64,000 nt of DNA from Fulvivirga marina (lineage in GTDB: Bacteria > Bacteroidota > Bacteroidia > Cytophagales > Cyclobacteriaceae): the NCBI RefSeq assembly GCF_016775155.1, contig NZ_JAEUGD010000066.1:250763-314762 (forward strand), written 5' to 3'. A program made the translations under genes and the position numbers. Positions 9,205-50,824 of this stretch are shown here, piece after piece. The notes beneath the pieces are model-generated. The model was not told the DNA's origin and did no database searches. It saw only the letters and a program-made list of their open reading frames with translations. The number at the start of each line of letters is the position of its first letter. Position 1 is the first letter of the stretch.

Positions 9205-10098
9205 CTACCAGCCAGCTTCTTTTTTCTTCTCTAGCTGAAAAGTTCTGGAAATATTAAACCCAAAGTGGATATCTCCATCAAAGAAATCATCATTAGTCTC
9301 TGTAATAAACGATCTCTCAATAGCTGTAACCGAATTAGTAAAGTGTAGCTGAAATACGTGACCTCCTGTTTCAATATCAAAGCCTACGGCGATCGAATTT
9401 TTGTAAATGCTATTTTCAGGTGGATTAATGCGATAATAATACTCTGCGTTAAACGCTAGTCGTCGCGTTAACTTTACACGCCCTCCCATTCCAATCGCAA
9501 TCTGATCATTATCATCAAAAATTTCAACCCTGTTTTTATGCACAAAAGTAGGCATCACCTGTAAAGACAGATTGCTGCTAAACTTCCTAGCTATTAGTAA
9601 CTGACTAACTGTAGCCAATCTGTCGTTAAAAGAATAAGTAGGGTCATCCTCTTCTTTAGGGGTAGTTTTAAGAGCAAGGCTATTAAACAATACCATACTC
9701 ACCGGGGCTCCATTAGAAGCCTGTCTTATAAATTTATATTTCAGAAAAGCATCGAAACTCTTATCATAGGAACTTCTGCCAACTCCTAAGTTAATATTAT
9801 CTGTAATACCATATTCTAACCCCAGCCTGATGTTTGCATTATCCAGACCGAATAAATTATGTGCACCAGAGTTCACCCTCCCAAACCTATGGCTGATCAA
9901 AAATTCTAGCGCTTGTTTATGCTTGGTTTCTACAGAGTGACCTAATATCACCCTAGAGCCTTTAAAAGTGGCCGAAGTATATTGTTTACCTTCAGGTTCA
10001 TCAACAAGGTCCATTAAATCATCCTGAGCCATAACCGGAAGGTGAATAATCATAGCAAAAGCAGCCATGAAGTAATAAAATACATATCTAAAATTCAT
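9205..10098 (-). CDS. DUF5777 family outer-membrane beta-barrel protein
   Basis: A 297-residue protein with a cleavable signal peptide (ending PVMAQ). The rest has alternating amphipathic strands. The motif SHRFGRVNSGAHNLFGLDNA followed by NIRLGLEYGITDNINLGVG is the signature of DUF5777, an outer-membrane barrel family of Bacteroidota. It is the last gene of the ECF-sigma operon, 14 bp after yceI. Its usual company of a YceI protein and a c-type cytochrome-like protein is found here too. I infer a shared envelope role, perhaps electron transfer or isoprenoid/quinone handling, but no direct evidence is visible. Confidence 0.88.
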   Translation of the reverse strand: MNFRYVFYYFMAAFAMIIHLPVMAQDDLMDLVDEPEGKQYTSATFKGSRVILGHSVETKHKQALEFLISHRFGRVNSGAHNLFGLDNANIRLGLEYGITDNINLGVGRSSYDKSFDAFLKYKFIRQASNGAPVSMVLFNSLALKTTPKEEDDPTYSFNDRLATVSQLLIARKFSSNLSLQVMPTFVHKNRVEIFDDNDQIAIGMGGRVKLTRRLAFNAEYYYRINPPENSIYKNSIAVGFDIETGGHVFQLHFTNSVTAIERSFITETNDDFFDGDIHFGFNISRTFQLEKKKEAGW

Positions 10099-10112
10099 TG
10101 TCTTTTCTTTCC

Positions 10113-10649
10113 TTAAATTGGTTTATAAATAAAGTTGATGGTTACTTCTACTTCTTCAGCAATATTTTGCCAAAGAACCTGAGGTATTTTTACCTTGTAA
10201 TCTTCCAGGCGTACAGGAAATACACTTTTAAGGTATAACTTACCATCCTTATATTCCATCTCTCCATCTACATTTATAGCACGTGTAATACCATGTATCG
10301 TTATGTCTCCTTTAGCTGTTACCTTTTGAGTTGCCTTACCTTCCTCATAATTGATCACCTCTCCTTTAAATATAGCTTTTGGATATTTTTCAGACTCCAT
10401 GTAGTTTTCATTGAAATGCTCCTGCATTAACGATTTTTTGAACTCAAAAGAAGTGATTGGTATAGAAAAAACGATCTGCTTACTTTCTTCATCAAATACA
10501 CTTGACCCATCCTTGTTGTCAGCAGCTATATTTTCCAGAGTGGCTTCTGAAAAGAACCTTACCTTACTTTCAAAGGATTTGTATTTCTGCCCATAAGCGG
10601 TGATACTAAGGCCAAATATTACGATTAATAATTTAATTCTTGGATTCAT
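10113..10649 (-). CDS. YceI family periplasmic protein
   Basis: A 178-residue protein with a signal peptide (ending TAYGQ) and a full YceI lipocalin-like domain. The conserved core includes MQEHFNENYMESEKYPKAIF, then AKGDITIHGITRAI and FPVRLEDYKVKIP. YceI proteins bind polyisoprenoid lipids in a long hydrophobic pocket, and here the substrate is unknown. It lies 20 bp after the lipoprotein gene and 14 bp before DUF5777, in the operon led by the ECF sigma factor. Confidence 0.92.
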   Translation of the reverse strand: MNPRIKLLIVIFGLSITAYGQKYKSFESKVRFFSEATLENIAADNKDGSSVFDEESKQIVFSIPITSFEFKKSLMQEHFNENYMESEKYPKAIFKGEVINYEEGKATQKVTAKGDITIHGITRAINVDGEMEYKDGKLYLKSVFPVRLEDYKVKIPQVLWQNIAEEVEVTINFIYKPI

Positions 10650-10669
10650 GGTTGTTAATATTATTGTTT

Positions 10670-11485
10670 TTAATTTTTCAGAGCTCCATCTTCTACCCAG
10701 CAGGCGATAAGATCCTTTTCCTCCTGCGATAGTGATTGGTTTGAATCCGGTGGTGGCATATCACCATTTTGGGTCAACTTCTTTATGTTATCAGCATGTT
10801 CCTTTACATTAGCAAAAACATTCCAATTCAGATTTGCCCCCTGATCTCCATTATGGCAACCTTCGATTGCACAGTTAGTTATTATAATTTCTTTAACCTG
10901 TTGCTCATAGCTTGTGCCATTAAAAATAGTTTTTTGGGCAAACACCTGGCAACCGGCTTCATCTTTTACAACTATTTTATATGTCCCAGCGGCTAGCCCG
11001 CTAAATGTATTTAAGGACTGGAAAGTGCCATTATCCAGTTGGTACGACAGCTGACCTTCACCAGTAGCATTTACAACGAGTTCACCCCCTTCCGAATCAC
11101 ACCCCGCACTGGTAGTAGATATACTGTTTATGACCAATGAAGAGCCCACAACACCAATTGTAATTGAAGTAGTTACTTCACACTCATTAACATCCCTAAC
11201 GGTCACCACGTAATTTCCAGCAGAAAGTCCCGAAAACACTCCGGTGGCCTGAAAATCCACACCGTTAACACTATACAGCAAATCTCCCTGCCCTCCTTGT
11301 GCTGAAGCTGTCACAGCTCCATCCTTAGCAAGGCAATCGGATACATTCTTCACGTTGTCTATTTCTATTTGAAGGCCTGAATCCGCGCAGTTGACGGGTT
11401 CAGGATCTTTCTCACTGGAACACCCAGAAAGCCATAACAGCCCCAAACTAAGGGCAACACAATATGTCCTTATCGATCTTTTCAT
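10670..11485 (-). CDS. SprB-repeat lipoprotein with cytochrome c-like C-terminus (CX4CH)
   Basis: A 271-residue lipoprotein (lipobox LSGC, Cys about 22). Two SprB-type repeats follow, seen as FSGLSAGNYVVTVRDVNEC and FSGLAAGTYKIVVKDEAGC at their ends. The C-terminal 80 residues look like a cytochrome c domain of the type found with planctomycete-style cytochromes: ITNCAIEGCHNG, then GDMPPP and DLIACWVEDGA. The heme motif is CAIEGCH, that is CX4CH instead of CXXCH. MPPP would supply the Met ligand. If heme is bound, this is a surface or periplasmic electron carrier. It lies 14 bp after the anti-sigma gene. Confidence 0.8.
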   Translation of the reverse strand: MKRSIRTYCVALSLGLLWLSGCSSEKDPEPVNCADSGLQIEIDNVKNVSDCLAKDGAVTASAQGGQGDLLYSVNGVDFQATGVFSGLSAGNYVVTVRDVNECEVTTSITIGVVGSSLVINSISTTSAGCDSEGGELVVNATGEGQLSYQLDNGTFQSLNTFSGLAAGTYKIVVKDEAGCQVFAQKTIFNGTSYEQQVKEIIITNCAIEGCHNGDQGANLNWNVFANVKEHADNIKKLTQNGDMPPPDSNQSLSQEEKDLIACWVEDGALKN

Positions 11486-11499
11486 TTTAATAAGTTTGT

Positions 11500-13251
11500 T
11501 TATTTATTTTGGTTGAACTTATACATAAGATTTAAAAATGCACCGGTAGAAACCAGGTCTACCTTCCCCTCCCCTATACCCGCAACAGGTGCCTTAATAA
11601 AGGGCTCTAATTGAACAAAAAAACCATTCTTTACCTGTCTTTCATAACCCAACGACAGGTTCAGCACGCTAAAAAAATGGTTGTTCTTATTTTCATATTC
11701 ACTGGACCACTCCTTTTCAGTGCCATTGGCTTTGCTGAAGAAATCATAACTTTCCAGTAGCATGATATAGCTTGAAAAACCAGTCAATAGATAAAAACCA
11801 TGATTAACATTTTTACTTAGGTAGTAACTTATATTTACCGGAATATCAATTACCCTGCAGTCACCATCTATTCTAATGAAATCACTTGAACCTGAATAGT
11901 AACCTCCTCCGGAACTCTCCTCACTGAAATAGATTTTGCGGGAATAAATAGCTCCCGTTGAAATGCTCCACCGATTGATATAGTATGCTCCCATCAAACC
12001 AAAGTTACTTCCAGGCTTATCAGGCTCAAAATAACCTACAGAGGTTAGGTCTGGCGAATAAGCAAGTTTCAATGCAAAACTTCTACTATTGAGCGACGCC
12101 TCTCCTGTTATATCATCACTATCATCAGGAATCTCTACCATATTCAATTCTCTGTGATCAAATGAATATGAGTATTGGTGCTCCAAATAGCTCTTGGGCT
12201 CAAGAAATGCAGGGCTATAGACCCAAACTTGTTTATCCTTTTTAGAATAATTATCACTTCTTTCTTTACCAGCATTTGCTATGACCTGCCGATTTTCCTC
12301 CTTTGATTTAATCTGTCTATTAGACATGGTCTCTTCTTCCGGCTTGTCCTCTATAACACCCACAAGTTCATCATTATGAATCCGCTCTGCCGTACGAACC
12401 TCTATAGCATAGATATCATCAGCAGGCTCTTCATCAAAACCTCTCTTTTCTTCCCTTTGCTGATCACGGTCCTGCCTGGCATCAATAATACTCACCTGCA
12501 ATCCTGCATTGAATTTCTCGCTCTCAATATTATGTTCCCTCATAGTATACCTTGAAATTTCAGTGCTATAGATATTACTTTCCTCAACGTCAACCATGTT
12601 TTTATCTTCTTCTGATAACTTACCAGTAATATTCTCTTCTGAACTTATTTCCATATTTCCCAAAGAACTCTCCGGTTGCCTGTCATTTTTTCGCTCAACG
12701 GTTGTCAGCCTATACCTTTTTGCATTCTGAGAGCTATCAAAGACAGATTCTCCTTCCTTCAGTATCTCCGAACTGGAGGAAACATAGCCCTCCGTATCGT
12801 CTCTTTCGTTCACTAATTCCTCTCTATTTTTACCATGTCCTGAAGTTTCTTTATCAATGCCTCCATTAGAAAAGTATTCTGCATTGAAATTACCTGGTTC
12901 AGAGGTTCCTCCCTGCTGCACGCCTATGTTTTCATCACCCGCTTCAAAACAGTTATCTCTAACAGCATTTGTCTCCTGACGCTCTTTCATTTGATGCTCT
13001 ATAGTAACCTGAGAAACCTCTGCTAAAGGTATTACCTGACGCTCAGAAGATATTTTCCATATTACAATAGAACCTAGCAACAAAACACCTATTATCCCGC
13101 CCAGAATCTTAAAATAAGAGAAGCCATCGTCACCTCCATCATCTATTCTACGTTCCATATCTTCCCAGGCAGACTCATCAAATGATGCCTGATACTCTTC
13201 AGCCGCCTCCTTAAACAATTTGTCTAAATCATTGTCAGATATATTGCTCAT
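11500..13251 (-). CDS. Putative dual-membrane-spanning anti-sigma factor with outer-membrane beta-barrel
   Basis: A 583-residue protein with an unusual layout. Residues 1-45 are an acidic cytoplasmic segment (DLDKLFKEAAEEY, then SFDESAWEDMERRI) like the N-termini of Bacteroidota anti-sigma proteins. Residues 46-67 are one transmembrane helix. Residues 70-370 are a charged, low-complexity linker rich in E, D, K, N and S. From about residue 400 to the end there are amphipathic strands of a PorT-like outer-membrane barrel ending in LMYKFNQ. The gene overlaps the ECF sigma gene by 17 bp. This matches the Dma class known from Bacteroides, where a single chain links sigma factor and outer membrane. 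That function is inferred here. Confidence 0.8.
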   Translation of the reverse strand: MSNISDNDLDKLFKEAAEEYQASFDESAWEDMERRIDDGGDDGFSYFKILGGIIGVLLLGSIVIWKISSERQVIPLAEVSQVTIEHQMKERQETNAVRDNCFEAGDENIGVQQGGTSEPGNFNAEYFSNGGIDKETSGHGKNREELVNERDDTEGYVSSSSEILKEGESVFDSSQNAKRYRLTTVERKNDRQPESSLGNMEISSEENITGKLSEEDKNMVDVEESNIYSTEISRYTMREHNIESEKFNAGLQVSIIDARQDRDQQREEKRGFDEEPADDIYAIEVRTAERIHNDELVGVIEDKPEEETMSNRQIKSKEENRQVIANAGKERSDNYSKKDKQVWVYSPAFLEPKSYLEHQYSYSFDHRELNMVEIPDDSDDITGEASLNSRSFALKLAYSPDLTSVGYFEPDKPGSNFGLMGAYYINRWSISTGAIYSRKIYFSEESSGGGYYSGSSDFIRIDGDCRVIDIPVNISYYLSKNVNHGFYLLTGFSSYIMLLESYDFFSKANGTEKEWSSEYENKNNHFFSVLNLSLGYERQVKNGFFVQLEPFIKAPVAGIGEGKVDLVSTGAFLNLMYKFNQNK

Positions 13252-13837
13252 ATATTTCCTTATTCATCTTCATCAACATCTTTCTCAAATTAGCCCTGGC
13301 TTTCGATAGATTAGACTTTGATGTTCCAACAGAAATACCCAATTGCTTAGCTATCTCCTCATGGTTATACCCATCAATTACATATAAACTAAATACTGTC
13401 CTATACATTGGCGAAAGCCTCTGAACCAACTCCAGAATATCATTATGCGACATATCATCAATTACATCAACGCTCACCTGTTGATCATGTCCCTCGGTAA
13501 TATCCGCATGATAATAATGTTTTTTATTTGCCCTGAAGTGGTCTATTGCAGTATTGATCATAATCCTTCTTAGCCACCCCTTAAATGACCTTTTCGAATC
13601 ATACATATCAATTTTAGCAAAAACCTTCATAAAAGCATCATTTAAGATCTCCCTGGCTTCTTCATGATCCTGCGCATACCGCACACATATACTCATGGCA
13701 TAACCATAGTAATGCTTATAGAGCATACGTTGACTCTCTCTATTTTTACTTTTACACCCCTCTATTAAGATCATGTCATAGTCAGGATTAACCGTATTAT
13801 TAGACCTTTTGCCCTCATGACGGAGATAAATTTGCAT
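13235..13837 (-). CDS. ECF sigma factor (sigma-70 family, region 2 and 4)
   Basis: A 200-residue RNA polymerase sigma factor. Region 2 spans about residues 35-100 (YKHYYGYAMSICVRYAQ, DAFMKVFAKIDMYD, FKGWLRRIMINTAIDHFR). Region 4 spans about 130-185 (LSPMYRTVFSLYVIDGY, then HTH HEEIAKQLGISVGTSKSNL). A clear AAGGAGGC ribosome-binding site precedes the ATG, stronger than is usual here. It overlaps the downstream anti-sigma/barrel gene, so the pair should be made together. It is the first gene of a five-gene operon. The 286 bp upstream, before the small-RNA array, hold no gene. Confidence 0.95.
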   Translation of the reverse strand: MQIYLRHEGKRSNNTVNPDYDMILIEGCKSKNRESQRMLYKHYYGYAMSICVRYAQDHEEAREILNDAFMKVFAKIDMYDSKRSFKGWLRRIMINTAIDHFRANKKHYYHADITEGHDQQVSVDVIDDMSHNDILELVQRLSPMYRTVFSLYVIDGYNHEEIAKQLGISVGTSKSNLSKARANLRKMLMKMNKEIYEQYI

Positions 13838-14123
13838 TGGTTGCCTCCTTATTCAATTTACGAGTTTAAACTTTAATTCTTAAGTTAAGAACCGGCACAG
13901 AGCGTGGCTGCTTACTCAAAAGCCAAAGAGAATAAATCCAATGCTAGCAGGAACTATATTATTGTCTATATGGGGTATACACTGACTGGAATACAGGTGT
14001 ACAATAAGTGAACAACGTTGATAATAGCGTTCTTTAGCTACAAAATTAGGCACAAGTATCGAGTTATTTATAAAATAACTGTAGAAGGTAAGCTAGAGTA
14101 GTTAGACAAAAACCTTTATAAAC

Positions 14124-14181
14124 AAAAAAACCCTGAGAACCTAGCTCAGGGGGATTTCTGTTGTCTATAGTTGGCTTTAAT
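14124..14181 (-). ncRNA. Small RNA array, copy 1 (candidate)
   Basis: On the minus strand, TAAAGCCAACTATAGACAA (14179-14161) is followed by a terminator hairpin, CCCTGAG/CTCAGGG with a 7-nt loop (14151-14131), and seven T. A -7-like box TATCTTTC (14194-14187) lies 8 bp upstream of the leader. TTTG (14217-14214) lies 19 bp further up, the spacing expected of a Bacteroidota promoter. The transcript would be about 58 nt and has no open frame. Confidence 0.6.
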
Positions 14182-14217
14182 TGAATGAAAGATAGTATCA
14201 TTCCTTTCTTTTACAAA

Positions 14218-14294
14218 TAACGAAACGACCAATAACAAATACTACCGTTAAAGTGCAGCAATGGGCAATAAACATCAGCTCTCGACTAACGAAT
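14218..14294 (-). repeat. Conserved block upstream of small-RNA copy 1
   Basis: This block shares long runs with 14687-14763, including GAAACGACCAA, GCAA and AAACAT in the same order and spacing. Both blocks lie directly behind the promoter of a small-RNA copy, so either the duplication included upstream DNA or the block is a kept regulatory region. Confidence 0.65.
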
Positions 14295-14404
14295 GTATGC
14301 AATATTGTTTATTTAGTGTTGGGAAAGGGTATAACAGGCAAACTATGTAAAATACCTAAAAAATAATCGGATATTTTAAACATCGATAATCTCTGCATAC
14401 AAAC

Positions 14405-14463
14405 AAAAAATCCCCTGAAGTCATACTTCAGAGGATAATTCGTTGTCTATAGTTGGCTTTACT
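14405..14463 (-). ncRNA. Small RNA array, copy 2 (candidate)
   Basis: The same 19-nt leader (14461-14443) precedes an 11-bp stem (14436-14426 with 14420-14410) containing one G-U pair and ending in a T run. The loop is TATGA, not CTAGGT as in copies 3 and 4. The -7-like box TACTTTAG lies at 14475-14468, 7 bp from the leader. No -33 box is clear. The stem sequence differs from the other copies, yet it pairs fully. Confidence 0.55.
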
Positions 14464-14590
14464 GATACTAAAGTAGCAAGTAATAATAGCTTCAGGAAGT
14501 AAATTCAGATCAACAGTTAATTTTACCTACCAAACAACCACATCAAAAGTTAAACGACTGGCGACCTAATAGTTACAATCACACACAAAA

Positions 14591-14649
14591 CAAAAAATCC
14601 CTCAGGGACCTAGCCCTAAGGGATTTCTGTTGTCTATAGTTGGCTTTAA
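14591..14649 (-). ncRNA. Small RNA array, copy 3 (candidate)
   Basis: The leader is at 14647-14629. A 12-bp stem (14624-14613 with 14606-14595) with one G-U pair encloses the loop CTAGGT, followed by a T run. The -7-like box TATCTTCG lies at 14662-14655, 8 bp from the leader, with TTTA 19 bp further upstream. Confidence 0.6.
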
Positions 14650-14686
14650 TTATTTCGAAGATAACAGACTAATAATCAATTGTAAA

Positions 14687-14763
14687 TAATGAAACGACCA
14701 ACGACATATAACAACGACTAAGTGTAGCAACAGTCAACAAACATATCCACTCAGGCTAATGAA
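14687..14763 (-). repeat. Conserved block upstream of small-RNA copy 3
   Basis: This is the second copy of the block at 14218-14294. Copies 1 and 3 therefore look like products of one duplication of promoter, leader, hairpin and upstream region together. Confidence 0.65.
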
Positions 14764-14855
14764 CTTTAATCGAGAATAATAATCAGGATGGTGTAGAGCT
14801 ACGATGTCTAATAAGCATAAGCCACAATCATGCCCTTTCCAAATAGAAATTAAAT

Positions 14856-14915
14856 AAAAAATCCCTTAGGGACCTAGCCCCAAGGGATTTTTTGTTGTCT
14901 ATAGTTGGCTTTAAT
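14856..14915 (-). ncRNA. Small RNA array, copy 4 (candidate)
   Basis: The leader is at 14913-14895. A 16-bp stem (14893-14878 with 14871-14856) encloses the loop CTAGGT and has one G-U pair. Its base is A6/T6, so the T run pairs with the A run. The -7-like box TACCTTTA lies at 14929-14922, 9 bp from the leader. It is the copy nearest to the one-helix membrane protein gene. Confidence 0.6.
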
Positions 14916-14992
14916 ATGAAGTAAAGGTATAGCCTAAAACTGCTTTTATCAATTTAACATCGACAAACGAATATTATGATCGTTGGACTGCA

Positions 14993-15196
14993 TTAATCGT
15001 CGTTGAATTGCACTTTACTAAGACTGTCAGCATAAATAGTATCCTTTTTCTGCTCTCCTCTATGAAGCAAGCGTTCTTTTAACTGAGGTTTTGATCCTGG
15101 AAAAGTGGTCCTTATTGAAATATCATAAGTGACATAGATCATCGCTCCGAAAAATATCATCGCAAATAACAAAAAAAGTTTCTTTTTACTCATCAT
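14993..15196 (-). CDS. Small single-helix membrane protein
   Basis: A 67-residue protein. MMSKKKLFLL leads into one hydrophobic helix of about 18 residues, with Lys on the cytoplasmic side. The remaining 40 residues are charged and would lie outside the membrane. Either of the first two Met could be the start. No family is recognised. It lies directly upstream of the four-copy small-RNA array on the same strand, and read-through from it would enter copy 4. It is divergent from dinB. Confidence 0.65.
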   Translation of the reverse strand: MMSKKKLFLLFAMIFFGAMIYVTYDISIRTTFPGSKPQLKERLLHRGEQKKDTIYADSLSKVQFNDD

Positions 15197-15346: not shown

Positions 15347-16414
15347 ATGAGAAAGATTATACATATTGATATGGATGCTTTTTATGCCTCTGTTGAGCAA
15401 CGTGACAACCCTGAGCTAAAGGGGAAGCCTGTTGCAGTGGGCGGTAGCTCTGACCGTGGTGTAGTGGCGGCTGCAAGTTATGAAGCCCGGAAGTTTGGAG
15501 TTCGTTCTGCTATGCCATCTTCCATTGCAGCTCGAAAATGTCCTGATTTGATCTTCATTAAGCCTCGATTTGACGCATATAAAGCAGTATCAAACCAGAT
15601 ACGAGAGATTTTTTTTGAATATACGGATTTAGTTGAGCCTCTTTCTTTGGATGAAGCATACCTGGATGTAACACACAACAAAATGAATATGCCTTCTGCC
15701 ACCCTTATTGCCAGGGAGATAAAATCTAAAATAAAAGAGAAAACACAATTAACTGCATCGGCAGGTATTTCAATCAATAAATTCCTGGCAAAAACTGCCT
15801 CTGATGTAAACAAGCCCGATGGCCTATTTCTTATACCTCCAGATCAGGCAGAAGCTTATATAGAAAGCTTACCTATAGAACGTTTTTTTGGTATCGGTAA
15901 AGTAACTGCCGAAAAAATGCATAAAATGGGCATTAAAAATGGGCTTGACTTAAAAAAGTATAGCGAATCTGATCTGGCTATTAGATTTGGTAAATCCGGT
16001 AGATACTATTACCGGATAGCCCGGGCTATCGATGACCGCGAAGTAAACCCACACCGCATACGCAAATCACTAGGTGCAGAAAACACCTTTCTTCATGACC
16101 TAACTCAACCTGATGAAATAAGAAAAGAGCTCGAAAACATCAAAGACATTTTGATTAACCGCATGAAAAGGTCTAGTACAAAAGGAAAAACACTTACTAT
16201 GAAAGTGAAATTTCATGACTTTCAACAAATTACCCGTAGCAAGACCATTACTAAATGGATCGAAAATGAAAACCAGGTTACTTCACTATATGAGGAGTTG
16301 CTCACCACTTTCGATACCTCCGATGTGAAAATTCGCTTATTGGGACTCTCCATTTCCAACCTAAATCATGAAATTGAAGAAACGGCCTCCTATCAACTCA
16401 CTCTGAAGTTTTGA
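15347..16414 (+). CDS. dinB: DNA polymerase IV (Y-family translesion polymerase)
   Basis: A 355-residue Y-family polymerase, near the usual length. The catalytic carboxylates are in HIDMDAFYASVEQ (Asp8) and LSLDEAYLDVT. The fingers motif AASYEARKFGVRSAMP and the helix-hairpin-helix IERFFGIGKVTAEKMHKMGI are clear. The little-finger domain fills the C-terminal third. It copies across damaged bases with low fidelity. A C-terminal beta-clamp peptide is not obvious. ACGAT and ATCGT flank AT-rich DNA at 15292-15307 and could be an operator, but this is weak. The 3' end overlaps the convergent DUF4442 gene by 17 bp. Confidence 0.95.
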   Translation: MRKIIHIDMDAFYASVEQRDNPELKGKPVAVGGSSDRGVVAAASYEARKFGVRSAMPSSIAARKCPDLIFIKPRFDAYKAVSNQIREIFFEYTDLVEPLSLDEAYLDVTHNKMNMPSATLIAREIKSKIKEKTQLTASAGISINKFLAKTASDVNKPDGLFLIPPDQAEAYIESLPIERFFGIGKVTAEKMHKMGIKNGLDLKKYSESDLAIRFGKSGRYYYRIARAIDDREVNPHRIRKSLGAENTFLHDLTQPDEIRKELENIKDILINRMKRSSTKGKTLTMKVKFHDFQQITRSKTITKWIENENQVTSLYEELLTTFDTSDVKIRLLGLSISNLNHEIEETASYQLTLKF

Positions 16415-40489: not shown

Positions 40490-40649
40490 ATCTGTTTTTA
40501 AGTAGGTATGCAAATGTATTAGTTAGGCCTATAAAAGACAAAAACATACCATTGAACGATCAAATTGTTTATTTATCCTTCACAATAAAAAAAATTATAG
40601 TTTTAATTTTTAGATTGACTATCCAAAACTTGCTAAAACATTAATTAAC

Positions 40650-50708: not shown

Positions 50709-50824
50709 AACTTATCTGCCCTCACATTATGTGAAGATGGATTTAGCACCTTTTTCCCAATAATCAGGAACGGTTGCTAAGGCTTCGCCGGGCCATTTCC
50801 CTCAGCCTTTCTTGATAAGAATAC
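50709..50824 (-). promoter_or_regulatory. SAM-I (S-box) riboswitch
   Basis: Reading the minus strand, the P1 arm TTCTTATC leads into the S-box core GAGGGAAATGGCCC (50803-50790), then AGCAACC (50778-50772) and GGTGCTAAATCC (50750-50739), and closes with GATAAG (50716-50711). These are the conserved SAM-I landmarks in order. High S-adenosylmethionine should favour the downstream terminator and switch off metH-metF. Confidence 0.95.

What the first reader, a model, noticed from the sequence alone, without database searches (positions are those of the whole stretch)
14124..14929. Four-copy tandem array of a putative small RNA family
Reading the minus strand, four units each hold a -7-like box (TATCTTTC, TACTTTAG, TATCTTCG, TACCTTTA), then 7-9 bp later an invariant 19-nt leader TAAAGCCAACTATAGACAA, then a terminator hairpin and T run. 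Hairpin stems differ between copies, but pairing is kept through G-U and compensatory changes, and the CTAGGT loop recurs in copies 1, 3 and 4. Copy 1 also has TTTG exactly 19 bp above its -7 box. Constant promoter spacing, a conserved exposed leader and pairing conservation point to independently transcribed RNAs of about 60 nt. The leader may be a seed that pairs with target mRNAs. I know of no named family with this layout.
Basis: partly seen in the sequence, partly recalled or inferred. Interest (0 to 1): 0.9.

Follow-up and report, generated by a model that had tools for sequence, protein, structure and literature searches.

The report
Multi-copy small RNA genes in Fulvivirga
Four look-alike stretches in a row are very probably small-RNA genes of a family not in the public RNA catalogue, in which a short exposed sequence is kept almost letter for letter in about a hundred copies, many with their own switch region, so it looks like a shared regulatory signal whose partner is still unknown.

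Summary
Four minus-strand units at 14124-14929 carry the exact 19-mer (0.03 expected), a -7-like box and a terminator hairpin. The own genome has 13 confident copies, five of them in a second tandem array. All 15 genomes of the genus that were searched have the family, with 2-13 copies each by my count. In the GTDB family 71 of 295 sampled genomes have a best E<=1e-5 (my count). In samples of 390 order and 395 phylum genomes, hits outside that family were 4 and 1, all weak. No Rfam 15 family matches. Compensatory changes support the hairpin; a C-NAG-G loop is kept in 72 of 76 and 22 of 23 units. New here: 36 of 93 non-redundant promoters carry direct repeats 19-21 bp apart, against 19 of 1396 ordinary upstream regions of a relative, a layout like LytTR activator sites. 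A conserved small-protein gene lies just upstream in 22 of 25 clusters of other genera and 11 of 59 in Fulvivirga. A trans-acting sRNA family is very likely. The mRNA-seed idea was not supported by a partial target search. No transcript data were available.

The parts
14120..14183 (-). sRNA copy 1: predicted start near 14183, leader 14179-14161, terminator hairpin and T run to about 14120
   Evidence: 66.9 bits; start inferred from -7 box spacing
14400..14465 (-). sRNA copy 2: leader 14461-14443, hairpin with a different loop (GTATGAC), T run
   Evidence: 66.4 bits; start inferred
14587..14652 (-). sRNA copy 3: leader 14648-14630, hairpin with CTAGGT loop, T run
   Evidence: 81.6 bits; start inferred
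14852..14917 (-). sRNA copy 4: leader 14913-14895, hairpin with CTAGGT loop, T run
   Evidence: 86.3 bits, best in the own genome; start inferred
14187..14194 (-). -7-like box of copy 1 (TATCTTTC); TTTG at 14214-14217 is its -33-like box
14468..14475 (-). -7-like box of copy 2 (TACTTTAG)
14656..14663 (-). -7-like box of copy 3 (TATCTTCG)
14922..14929 (-). -7-like box of copy 4 (TACCTTTA)
14225..14256 (-). operator-like direct repeats of copy 1, units 14256-14245 and 14236-14225, 20 bp apart
14506..14558 (-). operator-like units of copy 2, 14558-14547 and 14517-14506, 41 bp apart (no middle unit found); not among the 20 best pair scores of the window
14694..14725 (-). operator-like direct repeats of copy 3, units 14725-14714 and 14705-14694, 20 bp apart
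14960..15011 (-). operator-like direct repeats of copy 4, three units (15011-15000, 14990-14979, 14971-14960); the middle one was matched by a looser pattern that I added; the first overlaps the end of the small upstream gene
14993..15196 (-). 67-aa protein with one hydrophobic stretch and the motif YDIS.RTTFPGSKPQLKERL, conserved neighbour upstream of the sRNA in other genera
   Evidence: no Pfam or NCBIfam match

Best explanation
The locus is a cluster of four paralogous small-RNA genes of a multi-copy family. Each unit has its own promoter, a Bacteroidota-type -33/-7 pair, in many units helped by an activator that binds direct repeats about 20 bp apart just upstream. Each makes an RNA of about 65 nt: a 5' single-stranded leader with GCCAACUAUAGACA, then a terminator hairpin with, as a rule, a C-NAG-G loop. 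The RNAs share one recognition sequence and so act in trans on the same partner. Most likely the leader pairs with one or a few mRNAs, with copy number and separate promoters setting dose and timing. Shown here: units, copy number, pairing conservation, leader and loop conservation, repeat spacing. Inferred: transcription, the activator and its LytTR type, trans action, mRNA pairing.
For: Exact 19-mer in four window copies and exact 15-mer at 12 places in the genome; 13 model hits at E<=1.1e-7 in the own genome; 15 of 15 genomes of the genus. Stem covariation in 76 units, nearly all from Fulvivirga, and separately in 23 units of other genera. Loop C-NAG-G in 72 of 76 and 22 of 23. Direct repeats: pair distance 20 seen 42 times against 1.1 in shuffles over 93 non-redundant promoters; 26 of 66 Fulvivirga and 10 of 27 other-genus promoters have a 19-21 bp pair, against 19 of 1396 regions upstream of G198 ORFs and 1.1 of 93 in shuffles. 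Of 138 units tallied, 46 have an opposite-strand gene next downstream, 24 of them within 150 bases, so many cannot be leaders of the next gene (simple ORF calls of 100 aa or more). One RRM-1 protein and no Hfq hit in the genome; in Bacteroides thetaiotaomicron a 14-member sRNA family is bound and counteracted by an RRM-1 protein (passages of PMC11697453).
Against: No transcript data. No enrichment of leader complements near start codons in 47% of one relative, no outstanding duplex there. In the own genome the 15-mer with up to 2 mismatches has 29 places: 12 exact copies, one more copy, and 16 others, the same as the reversed pattern (16). The SusC-directed test was inconclusive. 18 leader columns are invariant in 23 units of other genera, longer than most seeds need (recalled), which fits protein recognition as well. 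57 of 93 promoters lacked a strict repeat pair. The regulator is unknown.
Confidence: 0.55

Rival explanations
1. The RNAs are protein-binding decoys: a protein binds the invariant leader (with or without the C-NAG-G loop) and the many copies titrate it, as CsrB-type RNAs do (recalled).
For: 18 leader columns invariant in 23 rows of the other-genus alignment; no leader complement enriched near starts; loop kept; many copies.
Against: No excess of the sense motif elsewhere in the own genome, as mRNA targets of such a protein might show; no protein partner known.
Confidence: 0.2
2. The RNAs pair with one conserved RNA (another sRNA, tRNA, rRNA or one mRNA) not covered by the partial target search.
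For: The long invariant leader suggests one fixed partner; only 1.6 of 3.38 Mb of the relative was scanned, and two 16S site patterns were not found in that half.
Against: Places within 2 mismatches of the 15-mer in the own genome, copies aside, are no more than for the reversed pattern (16 and 16). Shorter complementarity is not excluded.
Confidence: 0.15
3. The units are a repeat element (MITE-like or duplicated promoter-terminator DNA) with no RNA function.
For: Near-identical tandem copies in some arrays, e.g. the C54 array.
Against: Compensatory changes in the stem; shared position behind the small-protein gene in 22 of 25 clusters of other genera.
Confidence: 0.05
4. Cis-acting leader or attenuator of a downstream gene.
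For: The next downstream gene is on the same strand at 84 of 138 units tallied, 14 of them within 150 bases.
Against: Tandem units each with promoter and terminator; 46 of 138 units have an opposite-strand gene next downstream and 8 none in the locus.
Confidence: 0.05

Closest known systems
FopS (family of paralogous sRNAs) and GibS of Bacteroides thetaiotaomicron (PMC11697453; passages seen)
   Same: Many paralogous sRNAs in one Bacteroidota genome, a shared 5' sequence, housekeeping-type promoters; an RRM-1 protein is present in both (here).
   Different: FopS copies number 12-15 per genome in Bacteroidaceae species named in the passage, repress susC mRNAs and bind RbpB; here tandem arrays, upstream repeats at 20 bp spacing, other hosts, no target found. 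FopS letters were not in the passages, so the two sequences were not compared directly.
Sibling sRNAs of Neisseria, NgncR_162/163 and relatives (PMC9973317, PMC5362039; search listing and start of abstract only)
   Same: Sibling sRNAs.
   Different: Other phylum; described there as regulators of metabolism.
OmrA/OmrB, Qrr, LhrC, CcsR sRNA sets (recalled, no call)
   Same: Multi-copy or tandem sRNAs with a shared single-stranded region, several under an activator.
   Different: Other phyla, different sequences; several use Hfq (recalled).
LytTR-type direct-repeat operators (PMC6193735; passages seen)
   Same: There two 9-bp repeats, mostly 12 bp and sometimes 11 or 13 bp apart (period 20-22 bp), with a bias to lie 10 bp upstream of the -35 box. 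Here the period is mostly 20 bp and the last unit ends about 8-9 bp above the -33 box (my reading).
   Different: Here up to three units, and no regulator has been tied to them; the genome has 19 LytTR matches.

Membership tests
Multi-copy sibling sRNAs (a kind, not a homology family) | Several paralogous genes for short RNAs with a common recognition region | tested here: met
   At the level of sequence: 13 copies in own genome, 15 of 15 genus genomes
Multi-copy sibling sRNAs (a kind, not a homology family) | Expressed as separate short transcripts | not testable with these tools
   No RNA data; promoter and terminator sequences only
Multi-copy sibling sRNAs (a kind, not a homology family) | Shared targets regulated through the common region | tested here: inconclusive
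   No seed enrichment in 47% of one relative; SusC test 6.5%
FopS/GibS | Sequence homology to FopS | not tested
   FopS letters not in the passages read; model R1 found one weak hit outside the family in 395 phylum genomes whose names are not known
FopS/GibS | Pairing with susC start regions | tested here: inconclusive
   30 of 44 SusC-like matches tested, mean duplex -7.77 against -6.77 (sd 0.60) for shuffled leaders
Any Rfam 15 family | Match at gathering score | tested here: not met
   Window and 15 related loci; the only matches were SAM in the window and DUF805b in L012, neither at an sRNA unit
LytTR-controlled promoters | Direct repeats with 20-22 bp period close above the promoter | tested here: met
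   19-21 bp pair in 36 of 93 promoters against 19 of 1396 controls; not seen in the other 57
LytTR-controlled promoters | A LytTR protein binds them | not testable with these tools
   19 LytTR matches in the genome, none assigned

The most novel reading that the evidence does not exclude
A dosage-tuned, Hfq-free RNA regulon private to one Bacteroidota family: 2-13 parallel RNA genes per Fulvivirga genome share an invariant code of up to 18 nt that is read by a protein or by a single RNA partner rather than by many mRNA seeds, many genes are switched by their own ladder of activator sites, and the system arose beside a small conserved membrane-protein gene with which it may be functionally linked.
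Probability: 0.25. Interest if true: 0.75.

Novelty: new member of a known kind. Interest (0 to 1): 0.62.

Why it matters
Regulatory RNAs of Bacteroidota are known mainly from Bacteroides (recalled), and three narrow searches of an open-access library found no paper on sRNAs of this group (one search listed one paper, which from its title and abstract start is about carbon sources and metabolites). The family is well delimited and has ready tests. It would let one ask how multi-copy sRNAs work without Hfq. The repeats give an entry to the regulator, the invariant leader to the partner.

Tried and rejected
Rfam at permissive threshold gave 16 weak matches in the region, all below their gathering scores (GcvB, RsaJ, His leader and others); rejected as chance.

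Antisense seed search near 1397 ORF starts in 1.6 of 3.38 Mb of G198 (k 7-10). TGTCTAT looked high (9 against 3.2) on genome frequency, but a Markov expectation from the same regions gives 9.7, so it was dropped. Many of the strongest duplexes lay inside ORFs or outside called genes.

SusC start test: 30 loci of 44 matches; start taken as the first in-frame ATG, doubtful for some (L305, L309, L320 among them); 6.5% of 200 single-base shuffles as good; one strong pairing (L300, -14.2). Not counted as support.

Model hits outside the GTDB family (L181, L182, L183, L185; L272) and the in-family hit L184 looked to me like chance terminators with partial leader likeness. Family hits with best E above 1e-5 (55 of 126 genomes) were not counted. 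Some entries of the genus list are the antisense of a true copy. Searches over 40 genomes used stricter filters that lose weak matches, so absence elsewhere is not proved.

Divergent copies behind the small-protein gene in 20 genomes of 18 genera without a hit at E<=1e-5: best model E 0.1 with filters off. In 12 of the 20 the locus holds a KPED.GK frame like that of DUF2452, which I read as the next gene; one such protein was tested against Pfam.

Operator scan in half of G198: top score 18.4 against 19.4 in a shuffled sequence, so nothing; the sRNA locus itself lies outside that half. Repeat distances 8, 13, 19, 27, 28, 41, 42, 52, 54 and 56 also exceeded shuffles at 5-9 pairs each (20, 21 and 40 had 42, 9 and 12); I did not explain all of these.

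Full report
Check of the observation. The minus strand holds four exact copies of TAAAGCCAACTATAGACAA, and nothing else in the 64 kb comes within three mismatches (0.03 expected). Boxes, hairpins and T runs are as described, with a 6-8 bp gap between box and leader. The copies are 265, 187 and 282 bp apart and lie in the gap between dinB (15347-16414, +) and an ECF sigma gene (13235-13837, -).

Copies in the genome and genus. The 15-mer GCCAACTATAGACAA occurs exactly 12 times in the 6.78 Mb genome: the four here, five in a second tandem array on contig C54, and one each on C8, C25 and C65. A covariance model built from 76 units (nearly all Fulvivirga, L098 from another genus) finds 13 copies at E<=1.1e-7. 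All 15 genomes of the genus that were held have it, from 2 copies (G011) to 13 (G000, G006) by my count of rows with E below 5e-7. An exact 20-mer scan of named genomes gave 42 stretches, all Fulvivirga or MAGs labelled Flammeovirgaceae or Bacteroidia.

Wider spread. In 295 genomes sampled from the same GTDB family, 126 have a match at E<=0.1, many weak; 71 (15 Fulvivirga and 56 others, in 13 of 84 genera, my count) have a best E<=1e-5. Of 390 order genomes 19 have a match at E<=0.001, four of them outside the family and weak (1.8e-4 to 7.0e-4); of 395 phylum genomes five, one outside and weak (6.2e-4). These samples share genomes, and the searches used stricter filters. So on this evidence the family is confined to one GTDB family. 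Units in other genera mostly read AGATTAAAGCCAACTATAGACA, and 23 of 23 aligned rows keep TAAAGCCAACTATAGACA. The model was built from leader matches, so leader conservation is partly a matter of selection. A second paralogue stands in tandem in two genera (L186-L190): TCGTG in the loop, leader GCCAACTGTAGAC in four of the five.

Structure. In the 76-row set 83.1% of pair cells are standard pairs, 147 cells have changes on both sides against 61.5 in shuffles, while the number of pairs with such a change is not exceptional (73 of 500 shuffles reach it); sliding the partner lowers each score except one pair count at -1. In the separate 23-row set from other genera, on a structure that I drew from it, 86.5% are standard pairs and 23 cells have double changes against 6.0. 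The stem reaches into the A tract and U tract in some units, e.g. L055, where AACAGAAAGCCCC faces GGGGCTTTCTGTT. The loop is C-NAG-G in 72 of 76 and 22 of 23; window copy 2 is one of the exceptions.

Promoters. Upstream of the leader a T-rich -33 box and a TAnnTT-like -7 box show in the ungapped profile. An expectation-maximisation run with no motif given found repeats of about GCA(A/G)TT(C/T)(A/G)(T/A)C at 20 bp intervals. Positions cluster near -98, -77 and -57 from the G of GCC; distance 20 occurs 42 times against 1.1 in shuffles, distance 40 12 times against 1.3, and some other distances 5-9 times. In a stricter count 26 of 66 Fulvivirga and 10 of 27 other-genus promoters have a 19-21 bp pair, against 19 of 1396 regions upstream of G198 ORFs; spacings of 13-15, 25-27 and 29-31 bp are seen in 0-4 promoters of a group. 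Non-redundancy was set at under 60% identity without gaps, so some orthologues remain. In the window the four best pair scores lie at promoters of copies 4, 1, 4 and 3, which also trained the matrix; the next is at 40548. LytTR regulators bind 9-bp repeats 11-13 bp apart, often 10 bp above -35 (PMC6193735, passages); the genome has 19 LytTR matches. The link to LytTR is an inference from spacing and sequence likeness.

Neighbours. A 67-aa protein with one hydrophobic stretch and the motif YDIS.RTTFPGSKPQLKERL is encoded just upstream of copy 4 (84 nt from the end of the match to AAAGCC). Relatives lie 55-169 nt before the first sRNA in about 34 held loci (37 rows printed, three repeating a locus). 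Counted by sRNA cluster, the motif is within 450 nt upstream of 22 of 25 clusters in other genera and of 11 of 59 in Fulvivirga. The protein is found in 273 of 295 genomes of the family, far more widely than the sRNA; four genomes with the sRNA have no match to it (G020, G022, G079, G116), and in G006, G007 and G010 it lies kilobases away from any listed copy. So the sRNA probably arose or settled behind an older gene and later spread to other sites in Fulvivirga. Other shared sites: between a CarboxypepD_reg protein and a PfkB kinase gene, and behind a LuxR-type response regulator.

Function. Separate promoters and terminators, and an opposite-strand gene next downstream at 46 of 138 units, point to stand-alone RNAs. 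Hfq gave no match, one RRM-1 protein is present. The seed hypothesis was tested in part and not supported: no enrichment near 1397 starts, no standing-out duplex, no excess of near-complements in the own genome, and an inconclusive SusC test. That leaves pairing with few targets, a single RNA partner, or a protein.

Known relatives. The nearest system that I know of is FopS in B. thetaiotaomicron, 14 paralogues that repress susC translation and are bound by RbpB (PMC11697453, passages). This family is like it in layout; homology was not tested. Paper searches: Fulvivirga with small RNA listed one paper, on carbon sources and metabolites; Cytophagales and Cyclobacteriaceae searches none. Surveys of candidate structured RNAs came up (listing only) and were not read.

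Noticed in passing
window 14993-15196: Small protein with one hydrophobic stretch (YDIS.RTTFPGSKPQLKERL), no Pfam or NCBIfam match, found in 273 of 295 genomes of the family, nearly always one copy in the rows seen (G155 has two).
   Followed up: partly
window 50709-50821: SAM riboswitch (RF00162, 87.8 bits), minus strand.
   Followed up: no
window 9205-13251: Operon-like run behind the ECF sigma gene: 583-aa protein, CxxCH lipoprotein, YceI, DUF5777 barrel; relatives of the lipoprotein or YceI gene lie next behind the sRNA in some loci of other genera.
   Followed up: partly
L186-L190: Second paralogue beside the sRNA in two genera, TCGTG in the loop, leader GCCAACTGTAGAC in four of five.
   Followed up: no
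window 40548: Operator-like repeat pair outside the array (score 15.9), possibly chance.
   Followed up: no
L012 306-340: DUF805b RNA motif (RF02914) within 700 bases of an sRNA copy.
   Followed up: no
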